NCBI RefSeq assembly: GCF_002804005.1
Contig: NZ_CP024965.1
Span: 496,001 to 560,000 of the forward strand
DNA from: Williamsoniiplasma somnilux
GTDB taxonomy: Bacteria; Bacillota_I; Bacilli_A; Mycoplasmatales; Mycoplasmataceae
Direction: 5' to 3'
Length of the DNA stretch: 64,000 bases
Under the pieces are notes generated by a model. That model worked only from the letters and a program-made list of their open reading frames with translations. It did not search any database and had not been told where the DNA came from. A program made the position numbers and the translations under genes. Within the stretch, counting starts at the first letter, position 1, and every line of letters starts with the position of its first letter. Positions 16,037 to 47,055 of this stretch are shown here, piece after piece.

Positions 16037-17578
16037 TTATTGAATAAAGGATGTTGCGACAAAATAGGCAATAAAAATCGCTGTTAACGGTCACATTGCG
16101 ATAGGCACTTGTTTTATTTTACCTGTAACTATCATAATGAATGTATAAGCAATAAATCCGACAGCCATTCCATTAGCAATTGTATAAGTAACCATCATAA
16201 ACATAATAGTTAAAAATACTGCTACTGAAAATTCTGGTTTTTTTCATTCTATTTCTGTTATTCCTGTAATCATCATAATTCCCACAAATATTAAAGCCGC
16301 AGAAGTAACACATTGAGGAATTGCTTTAAAAATAGGAAATAAAGCAATTGATGATAAAAATAAAAATGCAGTAATAATTGAAGCAAAACCTGTTCTTGCT
16401 CCTTGTTCAATTCCGGCTGAACTTTCAACATAAACACAAGCAGGAGTTGAAGCTAAAGAAGCGGCAATAACAGTTGAAGCTGAATCGACGATTAAAGCTT
16501 TTTGTTGGATTTCGTGATGTTGATTAGTTCGTTTATTTAATTGAACACTTGTAGCAGCTAATGTTCCTGTCGCATCAAAAAAACACATAAACATAACAAC
16601 AAATATTGAAATATATAAAACTGGCTTATTTCAAATTTCGGGGTTAGAAAATTCTTTTCAGGTATTTTTAATATTTAAAGTAAAACCACTAAAATCATAT
16701 TCTCAACCATGACCAATTAAAGAAAAATTGGATGCTCCGAAACCACCTTTATCAACAACTAATCAATGATTATCAGGTAAAGAATTGGCAACAATAACCA
16801 CAATTATAAATCCTGTTAAAATTGCTAAAGCAGCTGAACCAGGAACTTTTTTATAATGCAAAATTAACATTAAACCAAATGTAAAAGTTCCTACTATGAT
16901 CATTGGATAATTATTTCTTAAAATCGCTAAAGAAGCAATTGGTAAACCGCCGTCGCTTTTAGCAACTCAACCCATTCCAGATATTCCAGCATAAGAAATG
17001 AAAAAACCGATTGCAATTCCGACACCAAGAACTAAACTTTTTGGAATAGCATTAATAATTAATTTTCTTAAAGGAGTAACTGATAAAATAACGAAAACAA
17101 TTGATGATAACATAGTTGCAATCAAAGCACCCTCATATCCAATTCCTCCACTTCCGTTGGCAATGTTGAAAACAAACATTGCATTAAGACCCATTGAAGC
17201 AGAAACCGCTAAAGGTACATTTGCAAAAATTCCAATCACAAAAGTCCCAATAAAAGACGTTAGTGCTGTGGCTAAAAAAATTCCAAATGTATTCATGTGT
17301 TGATTAGGATCATGAATCGAAACAGCGTTACTAACAATGGCTGGGTTTACAGATAAAATATAAGACATTGCCAAAAATGTTATCAAACCTCCCATTATTT
17401 CTTTTTTAAAAGTAGAACCTAAAGTATCAAATTTAAAATACTTTTGAATTTTTGATATTGCTTTATTTTGACTAAATTTAAAATTTTTAGCATTAAGAGC
17501 AGCCGTTTGTTCGGGGGTTTGATTAGCAAATTTGTTTTGTTTATTTGCTTCTAAATTTATTAGATTTTCTGTATCCAT
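16037..17578 (-). CDS. Purine (guanine/hypoxanthine) permease, NCS2/AzgA-type
   Basis: A 513-aa integral membrane protein with about 12-14 hydrophobic segments, matching the AzgA-like branch of nucleobase:cation symporters (PbuG/PbuO type). Diagnostic segments include 'NAMFVF' with a 'SMGLNA' motif, 'DATGTLAA' and 'STPACVYVESSAGIEQGARTG', which carries the conserved Glu and the family's Gly-rich loop. A charged, Asn-rich N-terminal extension of about 50 residues comes first. The leader contains a guanine-type purine riboswitch with a terminator, which supports guanine or hypoxanthine as the substrate and predicts repression when purines are plentiful. Several Trp are TGA. Confidence 0.9.
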
Positions 17579-17626
17579 TTTTATCCTTTCTTAATTATTT
17601 GCAAATTGTTAAAGGAAAACCTAGAA

Positions 17627-17675
17627 ACAAAAAAACCATCTCCAGAAATACGAAAACTCGTAACTAAAGATAGTT
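17627..17675 (-). terminator. Riboswitch-controlled terminator in the permease leader
   Basis: On the minus strand two 12-base arms (17664-17675 and 17634-17645) pair with several G-U wobbles around an inner ACGA/TCGT hairpin, and are followed by seven T. It lies directly after the purine aptamer and before the permease ribosome binding site. It is therefore the expression platform: ligand binding should favour this terminator. Confidence 0.8.
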
Positions 17676-17679
17676 AAAC

Positions 17680-17743
17680 AACTCATAGGCTAACATAGGT
17701 GTTAGGTAGAGACTCCTCCCCAATATGGAGGATTATATAAGTT
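17680..17743 (-). promoter_or_regulatory. Purine riboswitch aptamer (guanine type, shortened L3)
   Basis: The minus strand folds as a purine riboswitch. P1 is AACTTAT/ATGAGTT, P2 is CCTCC/GGAGG with loop ATATTGG, J2/3 is AGTCTCTACC, and P3 is TAACA/TGTTA. J2/3 keeps the conserved U47, U51 and the following ACC. J3/1 reads CCTATG, with C at the position (C74) that pairs with guanine-class ligands. The L3 loop is only CCTA instead of the usual seven bases, resembling the L3 I remember for the Mesoplasma florum 2'-deoxyguanosine riboswitch. The ligand is most likely guanine or hypoxanthine, but 2'-deoxyguanosine is not excluded. Confidence 0.88.
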
Positions 17744-17785
17744 TTCTTTATTCAATTTACAATATTATTTTATAATAAAAACCAT

Positions 17786-17866
17786 AAAAAAAGTGTACTT
17801 AAAAATAAAAAGGGGTAACAAGTAAGTAAATTCGCTTTTTTCTGTCCAGTTTATTTTTAAATACAC
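17786..17866 (-). terminator. Long hairpin terminator of the chaperone operon
   Basis: Two 17-base arms with one mismatch (17793-17809 and 17850-17866, core TTAAAAATAAA/TTTATTTTTAA) enclose a loop of about 40 bases. On the minus strand they are followed by seven T. It begins 14 bases after the dnaJ stop and ends transcription before the permease promoter. Confidence 0.65.
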
Positions 17867-17880
17867 ACAAAACACACAAA

Positions 17881-18999
17881 TTATTCTAATTTATTTTTTG
17901 CTTTAAATTCATCTTTATTATTAATTTCTTCTAATTTTTCTTTAACTTCTTTGGAAGCTGATGAAGGAACAACGATATTTACTTTCAATTTTAAATCTCC
18001 ACGCTTATGAGAGTGAGAATCCTTATGCAACCCTTTATCTTTGATTGTGATATACTCTCCTGAATTAATTCCTTTAGGAACTTTCATTTTAATGATTCCA
18101 TCATAAGTTTCAATTGTGATTTCATTTCCTAAAATTGCATCTAAATAAGAAATGTTATAATTCATAATTAAATCAGATGATCCAGAAATTGAAAAAATGT
18201 TACTTTTAATAATTCCAACGTTAATATAAATATTCCCGTTAGGACCACCATCTTCACTAGCGTGTCCTGCACCCGACATCATAAGTTGTTGACCGGGTCT
18301 AGTTCCTTTTGGAATAGGTAAAGTTATTTCTTGAGTTTCAAATTTATAACCATGTCCTGAACAATCGCGGCATTTATTAGCGAATGTTTTTCCTGCCCCA
18401 TTACAGTTTGGACATTTAGCTTGTGATTGGAAACTTAATGGTCCCATTCTTTGAGTTGTCATTATTGAACCACTTCCGCCACATTGACCACAAGTTTTAA
18501 CATCATTTTTATTTGGAGCTCCAATACCATCACAAGTCTTACACTTTGTTAATAATTTAGTTTTAATTATTTTATCAACACCAAACATTAATTCTTTAAA
18601 ATTTAATTGAACATCAACAACAATATCTTCACCCCTTGAAGGGCCATAATTTCTGCGAGAACTAGAACTTTGTCCAGTTCCGCCAAACATGCTACCAAAA
18701 ATATCTCCAAATCCTCCAGCTGATGAGAAAAAATCTTCAAAACCACCAAATCCTGAACCACCAAATCCTGATTGCCCATCAACTCCTGCATGGCCTAATT
18801 TGTCATACATAGCTCTTTTATCTTTATCTAACAAAATTTGAGCAGCTTCATTGACTTCTTTAAATTTTTCTTCTGCATCATGACCTTTATTTACATCAGG
18901 GTGATATTTTTTTGCAAGATTCCGATATGCTTTTTTGATTTCCGTTTCATCAGCATTTTTAGATAATCCTAAAATTTCATAATAGTCTCTTTTTGCCAT
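17881..18999 (-). CDS. dnaJ: Chaperone protein DnaJ
   Basis: DnaJ is the Hsp40 co-chaperone that delivers clients to DnaK and stimulates its ATPase. The 372-aa protein has a J domain with HPD (in KYHPDVNK), a Gly/Phe-rich linker ([14 protein letters not shown] region), and the four zinc-binding CxxCxGxG repeats beginning [24 protein letters not shown] and CRDCSGHG. The client-binding beta domains follow. The true start is MAKRDYYE behind AAAGG; an upstream in-frame Met is less likely. It is the last gene of the clpB-hrcA-grpE-dnaK-dnaJ unit, with a hairpin separating it from dnaK. Confidence 0.97.
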
Positions 19000-19020
19000 T
19001 TTACCTTTCTTAATTAACAA

Positions 19021-46707: not shown

Positions 46708-47055
46708 ACAAGATTTTGCATAACCCACGTTCTGTACTGTTTCCAGTGTCAACCATCTATCTACATTGCTGTCCTAAGTTAAGTTCAATTCCTCTTCTTA
46801 GACTCCTCTACCAAAATTTGAGTTTCTTACTTGTGGGGTTTACCGCGTTCCATTTCCAGGTTTCCCTTTATTCGTCTCTGTGGCACATTAGTAACATCAC
46901 CATAGTTTCCCTTAGGTTAGTTACGCCGTCATCAAAATGATGCCTAATCTTATTTTTTCAATTAGCACAAACACTACAATCATCGCAGATTGTGTAAGCG
47001 TGGAGTTTCCTCTATATCATTTTTCAGATATAGCGATTGACTATCAAAATCTTAT
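46708..47055 (-). ncRNA. rnpB: RNase P RNA (bacterial type B)
   Basis: The catalytic RNA of RNase P. On the minus strand, arms AAGATTTTG (5') and CAAAATCTT (3') pair as P1. The conserved core is present: GAGGAAACTCC near the 5' end, CAGAGACGA, AAGGGAAACC, GGTAAACCCC, and ACAGAACGTGGGTTATG at the 3' end. The length of about 345 bases fits a mollicute type B RNA. It follows gpsB as in Bacillus. Ends are placed from P1 and may be off by several bases. Confidence 0.93.

What the first reader, a model, noticed from the sequence alone, without database searches (positions are those of the whole stretch)
17620..17750. Purine riboswitch variant with a 4-base L3 loop
Seen: aptamer with canonical P1-P2-P3 and J2/3 but L3 of only CCTA, and C in place of the usual A just before C74. 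Known: L2-L3 kissing contacts stabilise the standard aptamer; from memory, the Mesoplasma 2'-deoxyguanosine switch has a similar L3. Inference: reduced loop contacts, ligand guanine/hypoxanthine or 2'-deoxyguanosine. The downstream permease supports a purine base.
Basis: partly seen in the sequence, partly recalled or inferred. Interest (0 to 1): 0.55.

Follow-up and report, generated by a model that had tools for sequence, protein, structure and literature searches.

The report
Short-loop guanine riboswitch, recoded from adenine
An RNA switch ahead of a purine-importer gene in a small mollicute bacterium looks like an ordinary short-loop purine sensor, but two neighbouring letters in its ligand pocket have changed so that it should now sense guanine where the same switch in related species is built to sense adenine.

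Summary
In detail: a purine aptamer lies on the minus strand (17743..17680; RF00167, 54.0 bits, cut-off 37) with a 4-base L3 (CCUA) and C73-C74 in J3/1. The short L3 is common here: 68 of 108 confidently parsed RF00167 sites in the family have 4 bases, and it is known from the Mesoplasma florum 2'-dG switch. The 2'-dG reading fails: positions 22 and 51 are U, and the 2'-dG-I model gives no hit here at E<=10. What is notable is J3/1. The aptamer sits between dnaJ and an AZG-type permease; the 12 other genomes with dnaJ seen upstream all carry A73-U74 (adenine type), as does a purA aptamer in the same genome that differs at 3 of 63 aligned positions, two of them 73 and 74. Among the 108 sites, U74 precedes only purA or the permease; C74 precedes guaA, guaB, hpt and others. 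I read it as a guanine-sensing OFF switch (terminator -16.5 kcal/mol, z -5.96) recoded in place from adenine sensing. Ligand, switching and recoding are inferred; nothing was measured. A new member of a known kind with an unusual history.

The parts
17736..17743 (-). P1 5' strand AACUUAUA
17733..17735 (-). J1/2 UAA (U22 A23 A24)
   Evidence: U22 and A23 invariant in 68 of 68 short-L3 sites
17714..17732 (-). P2 (UCCUCC/GGAGGA) with L2 AUAUUGG
17706..17713 (-). J2/3 GUCUCUAC (positions 46-53; U47, U51)
   Evidence: all but position 48 invariant in 68 of 68 short-L3 sites
17690..17705 (-). P3 (CUAACA/UGUUAG) with 4-base L3 CCUA (17696-17699)
17688..17689 (-). J3/1 C73-C74, the specificity position; A-U at the same locus in the 12 syntenic relatives
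17680..17687 (-). P1 3' strand UAUGAGUU
17739..17746 (-). P strand GAAAACUU, predicted to leave P1 and pair with the T strand (antiterminator)
   Evidence: energies; prediction only
17652..17659 (-). T strand GAGUUUUC in the apical part of the terminator
   Evidence: prediction only
17634..17675 (-). Intrinsic terminator hairpin, -16.5 kcal/mol, z -5.96
   Evidence: the consensus scan did not list it
17629..17635 (-). Run of seven U after the terminator stem (overlaps its last two bases)
16037..17578 (-). Controlled gene: NCS2/AZG-type purine permease, 513 aa in code 4
   Evidence: ORF; PF00860; AZG1/AZG2
17881..19020 (-). dnaJ upstream on the same strand, anchor of the conserved locus
   Evidence: ORF; relatives; named by eye

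Best explanation
A guanine-sensing (probably also hypoxanthine-tolerant) transcriptional OFF riboswitch of the short-loop purine type, controlling an AZG-type purine importer. Guanine pairs with C74 in the three-way junction, closes P1, and keeps the 5' strand of P1 from pairing with the T strand inside the terminator, so the terminator forms and the importer is shut off; without guanine the P-T antiterminator forms in a short transcription window and the gene is read. The aptamer descends from an adenine-type (A73-U74) aptamer at the same dnaJ-permease locus and was recoded in place by A73C and U74C. Shown: sequence, structure model, homologues, gene context. Inferred: ligand, OFF direction, kinetic switching, history.
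For: RF00167 54.0 bits. The ligand-contacting bases named in PMC9295807 (U22, U51, C74) are present. PMC7287874 passages: base 74 sets guanine against adenine by Watson-Crick pairing, and C74U abolishes guanine binding. Among 108 confident RF00167 sites of the family, 20 of 20 U74 sites precede purA (6) or the AZG-type permease (14), while the 88 C74 sites precede guaA 7, guaB 9, hpt 14, purE 5, lipoproteins 23, permeases 19 (ours included) and others 11. Syntenic locus: 12 of 12 others with dnaJ detected are A-U. The own-genome purA aptamer differs at 3 of 63 aligned positions (plus one extra L3 base), two being 73 and 74. The permease groups mainly with the dnaJ-linked and A-U set (97/95). 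Terminator z -5.96. At the lengths tested P1 is favoured at 82-106 nt, the P-T antiterminator at 110-121 nt (-24.9 against -21.0 at 110 nt), P1 plus terminator at 127 and 133 nt: the PA / PT / PA-TH order described for the M. florum 2'-dG switch (PMC5838219 passages).
Against: No binding data. C73 next to C74 is rare (2 of 108), so affinity could be low; guanine riboswitches given 2'-dG-I-like loops bind guanine more than 50 times worse (PMC8872408 passage). U74 is not confined to purA and permease: one site found only by RF01510 (G049, 642175) has U73-U74 before a lipoprotein gene. Both apt and hpt are kept in this genome, so loss of adenine salvage does not explain the change. A P-T-P energy order arises in 19 of 300 shuffles of the downstream 60 nt, and beyond +66 the P strand is predicted to pair again, with a second site further down. 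Residues that separate the two permease groups give no clear answer. The tree is not clean: two C74 permease sites lie in the same 18-row group, the dnaJ-linked A-U permease of G004 lies outside it, and the fork just around ours has 85/72. Only one genome of the species was seen.
Confidence: 0.72

Rival explanations
1. It is a 2'-deoxyguanosine (2'-dG-I type) riboswitch, as the 4-base L3 suggests.
For: Same L3 length and sequence type as 2'-dG-I; RF01510 hits four other places in the same genome, three over its cut-off.
Against: U51 and U22 kept, where 2'-dG-I has C58 and C31; RF01510 gives no hit here at E<=10; L3 of 4 bases is found with U74 (18) as well as with C74 sites in the family; the gene is a base permease.
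Confidence: 0.05
2. The aptamer still senses adenine or has lost ligand sensing: A73C and U74C are a drifting lesion, and the leader now acts as a fixed terminator/antiterminator.
For: The three congeners lack an aptamer at this locus; C73-C74 is rare (2 of 108).
Against: Of the other 61 positions compared with the own-genome purA aptamer, 60 match, whereas decay should scatter changes; terminator and P-T pairing are intact; U74 to C gives a pairing partner for guanine, not a random base.
Confidence: 0.15
3. The guanine-type aptamer was not recoded in place but came in, whole or in part, from another C74 locus by gene conversion or transfer.
For: purA and permease aptamers are near-identical within each genome (0 to 3 of 63 differences in six genomes), which hints at exchange between copies; the guaA aptamer of this genome shares the P3 core CUAACA/UGUUAG.
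Against: The closest copy seen is the A-U purA one; the guaA copy, the only other C74 copy found by RF00167 in this genome, has J3/1 UC, another P2 and L3 CCCA, so it does not supply C73.
Confidence: 0.08

Closest known systems
Guanine-I purine riboswitch (RF00167; B. subtilis xpt type)
   Same: Three-stem junction, U22, U51, C74, GG of L2 facing CC of L3; scores over the gathering cut-off.
   Different: L3 4 bases instead of 7; C at 73 instead of A; L2 AUAUUGG.
Short-loop purine riboswitches of Mesoplasma and relatives (M. florum variants, Kim et al. 2007, not held here; recalled)
   Same: L3 CCNA; the syntenic relatives share most of P1, L2 AUANNGG and J2/3 GUCUCUAC.
   Different: C73-C74 where the syntenic copies have A73-U74 (12 of 12).
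2'-dG-I riboswitch (RF01510)
   Same: 4-base L3 and, by energy only, the P-A-T-H switching scheme.
   Different: U51/U22 instead of C; no RF01510 match here.
Adenine riboswitch
   Same: Near-identical to the A-U aptamer before purA in the same genome (3 of 63 aligned positions differ).
   Different: C74 instead of U74. The B. subtilis pbuE adenine switch is an ON switch (recalled); this looks OFF.

Membership tests
Purine riboswitch RF00167 (guanine type) | Covariance score over the family's gathering cut-off | tested here: met
   54.0 bits against 37
Purine riboswitch RF00167 (guanine type) | Pocket bases U22, U51 and C74 | tested here: met
   Read from the sequence; roles from PMC9295807 and PMC7287874
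Purine riboswitch RF00167 (guanine type) | 7-base L3 in the kissing loop | tested here: not met
   L3 is CCUA; 4 bases also in 68 of 108 confident family sites, ours included. GG:CC contact kept in sequence
Purine riboswitch RF00167 (guanine type) | A at position 73 | tested here: not met
   C73; 73 is A, U, G or C in C74 relatives
Purine riboswitch RF00167 (guanine type) | Binds guanine and controls the gene | not testable with these tools
   Needs binding and transcription assays
2'-dG-I riboswitch RF01510 | Match to the family model | tested here: not met
   No hit at this place at E<=10 in the own genome
2'-dG-I riboswitch RF01510 | C at positions 51/58 and 22/31 | tested here: not met
   U at both; roles from PMC8872408
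2'-dG-I riboswitch RF01510 | 4-base L3 | tested here: met
   CCUA
Adenine riboswitch | U at position 74 | tested here: not met
   C74
Guanine-II / xanthine-II | Insertions in J2/3, and in J3/1 | tested here: not met
   J2/3 is 8 bases and J3/1 is 2; description from PMC9295807

The most novel reading that the evidence does not exclude
A natural case of a riboswitch changing its ligand in place, from adenine to guanine, by two adjacent base changes in J3/1, with its near-identical adenine-type sister still present ahead of purA in the same genome and the adenine-type state seen in the 12 syntenic relatives.
Probability: 0.6. Interest if true: 0.55.

Novelty: new member of a known kind. Interest (0 to 1): 0.42.

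Why it matters
That one pyrimidine sets guanine against adenine is known from mutants. Here nature seems to have made the swap in one lineage while leaving a sister aptamer nearly unchanged, so the cost of the switch, the part of base 73, and binding with a 4-base L3 can be measured on a matched natural pair.

Tried and rejected
2'-dG-I reading: tested with RF01510 in the own genome and rejected. Gene loss as the reason for the change: apt and hpt are both present, and relatives with one AZG-type permease, such as G013 and G056-G059, still have A-U, so rejected. Co-evolution of permease residues: of seven positions that separate A-U from C74 permeases, ours is A-U-like at two, C74-like at three and neither at two; inconclusive. 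The genus g1 holds 4 genomes; Williamsoniiplasma is a guess from memory (taxonomy looked up). NCBIfam gave no family for the permease. The promoter/terminator consensus scan of 17560..17900 found nothing on either strand, although folding shows the terminator. One search was faulty (my constraint forbade all pairing of the P1 strands) and is replaced, 21 of 22 leaders show a window in which the P1 5' strand pairs downstream (the exception is the permease leader of G004), but in seven of them only at +69 or later, so this is weak as a shared mechanism. The first parser misplaces some 2'-dG-type and 9-base-L3 sites; counts use only RF00167 sites scoring 26 or more, which drops 20 of 128 family sites and 17 of 72 outside sites. 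The searches over more than 40 genomes used stricter filters that can lose weak matches.

Papers: PMC9295807 outline, named sections and passages; passages only of PMC8872408, PMC7745072, PMC5838219, PMC12268651, PMC6649850 and PMC7287874. Kim et al. 2007 is not held and is recalled. Searches for prior print on natural adenine-to-guanine recoding or on these species: (listings: titles and starts of abstracts); I saw no report of it in those listings. This does not cover papers outside the held library.

Full report
What is there. On the minus strand of the window, between dnaJ (19020..17881) and a permease gene (17578..16037; 513 aa in code 4), lies a purine riboswitch aptamer at 17743..17680. 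RF00167 finds it at 54.0 bits (cut-off 37) with E 2e-6 for the whole window. Its parts are P1 AACUUAUA/UAUGAGUU, J1/2 UAA, P2 UCCUCC/GGAGGA, L2 AUAUUGG, J2/3 GUCUCUAC, P3 CUAACA/UGUUAG, L3 CCUA and J3/1 CC.

The short L3. I collected 128 RF00167 and 113 RF01510 matches in the 60 held genomes of the family, which merge to 199 places, and parsed them by script. Of the 128 RF00167 places 108 parsed with confidence (20 dropped). Of these, 68 have a 4-base L3, 66 of them CCNA, in eight genera; genus g8 has loops of 5 to 9 bases only, and g9 has both kinds. In 66 of 68 the last two bases of L2 are GG and the first two of L3 are CC. Outside the family I parsed 72 loci, six from the same order and 66 from the class (30 best-scoring class loci plus 36 lower ones of my own choice); 55 were confident and none had a 4-base L3, 34 having 7. 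So, in this sample, the 4-base L3 is a trait of the clade. PMC8872408 (passages) states the same 4 against 7 contrast for the M. florum 2'-dG-I aptamer, with two L2-L3 G-C pairs kept.

Not 2'-deoxyguanosine. The base that marks 2'-dG binding is C at 51/58. Here positions 22 and 51 are U, and RF01510 gives no match at this place at E<=10 while hitting four other places in the genome. In all 68 short-L3 aptamers of the count U22, U47 and U51 are invariant.

The unusual pair. J3/1 in the 108 confident sites is AC 36, UC 36, AU 20, GC 6 and CC 2, the remaining 8 being read as 3 bases. The second CC site, in G042, resembles sites in G037, G038, G043 and G044 that have U73-C74, so C73 beside C74 occurs in an aptamer that was C74 already. 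At our locus the case differs. Twelve other genomes have dnaJ detectable directly upstream of the aptamer, and all 12 have A73-U74; in one of them, G015, the permease frame is broken. Two further A-U permease sites (G054, G055) have no dnaJ detected. Our permease falls in an 18-row group of the permease tree at 97/95 (42 rows, five cluster members under 290 aa left out) with 12 A-U rows, the three aptamer-less congeners and two C74 sites; the A-U permease of G004, also dnaJ-linked, falls outside it, and the fork just around ours has 85/72. In the same genome, a second aptamer with A73-U74 precedes purA (Adenylsucc_synt; purB follows by eye); it differs from ours at 3 of 63 aligned positions (middle of L3 not compared), namely 73, 74 and one base of P1, and has one extra base in L3. 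If three differences fell at random, both 73 and 74 would be hit with probability 0.0015, a figure computed after the fact. The guaA aptamer of this genome, before guaA and guaB, has J3/1 UC.

Ligand. In the 108 sites base 74 follows gene function: 20 of 20 U74 sites lie before purA (6) or the AZG-type permease (14), and the 88 C74 sites lie before guaA (7), guaB (9), hpt (14), purE (5), lipoproteins (23), permeases (19, ours included) and others (11). Cluster names are partly by eye; purA and guaA were checked with Pfam in the own genome. Against a strict rule, one RF01510-only site in G049 reads U73-U74 before a lipoprotein gene. Base 74 is known to decide guanine against adenine (PMC7287874 passages). 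I therefore predict guanine. The permease belongs to PF00860 and its only solved relatives found are the adenine/guanine permeases AZG1 and AZG2, so either ligand makes sense as feedback.

How it works. A hairpin that starts at the fifth base after P1 (17675..17634, then U7) folds at -16.5 kcal/mol, z -5.96, with none of 200 shuffles as good. It does not overlap P1, which implies an OFF switch. The antiterminator is predicted between the P1 5' strand, GAAAACUU (17746..17739), and GAGUUUUC in the terminator's upper part (17659..17652). By energy, at the lengths tested, P1 is best at 82 to 106 nt, the antiterminator at 110 to 121 nt (-24.9 against -21.0 kcal/mol at 110 nt), and P1 with the terminator at 127 and 133 nt. 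This is the order of states reported for the M. florum 2'-dG switch (PMC5838219 passages; PMC12268651 passages). From +66 on, past the terminator, the P strand is predicted to pair again, with a second site further down. The order P, T, P appears in 19 of 300 dinucleotide shuffles, so for one leader it is suggestive only; 21 of 22 leaders examined show some window with the P1 5' strand paired downstream, seven only at +69 or later.

History. The three congeners keep dnaJ next to a permease but have no aptamer found there (gaps of about 30, 100 and 102 bases, the first depending on the start codon chosen). In this genus the adenine-type control thus appears lost in three genomes and changed in the fourth. 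I found no cause: apt and hpt are both present, and permease residues are inconclusive.

Verdict. An ordinary riboswitch by kind and by loop, most likely guanine-sensing, with an uncommon past: an in-place change of the specificity pair at an adenine-type locus, beside a nearly identical adenine-type sister. No ligand was tested, and only one genome of the species was available.

Noticed in passing
L009 (G000:C1:95227-95291) and L011 (G000:C1:193805-193868): 2'-dG-type aptamers (C51) with J1/2 UAG and, as parsed, an unusual 9-base L3 (GACCAAAAG) before a large-chain ribonucleotide reductase (PF02867) and a DHH-family protein (PF01368); RF01510 scores 52.1 and 46.4 around the cut-off 51. Similar ones in genus g12.
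   Followed up: partly
G000, G004, G056, G057, G058, G059: aptamers before purA and before the permease: The two aptamers within a genome differ at only 0 to 3 of 63 positions while the same locus differs by up to 15 between genomes: exchange between copies or common constraint.
   Followed up: partly
L221 and L222 (G002, G003), gap between dnaJ and the permease: About 100 bases with a hairpin-like stretch and U-run, seen by eye, but no aptamer, as if the aptamer was lost and the terminator kept.
   Followed up: no
G055:C1:377704 and 648184: Two sister permeases in one genome, one under a U73-C74 and one under an A73-U74 aptamer: a second possible change of ligand in this group.
   Followed up: no
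G015:C1:531522-532912: A-U aptamer with L3 CAAA before a dnaJ-linked permease whose frame is broken (a TAG inside the PF00860 match).
   Followed up: no
window 46716-47050 (-): Class B RNase P RNA, 239.7 bits; ordinary.
   Followed up: no
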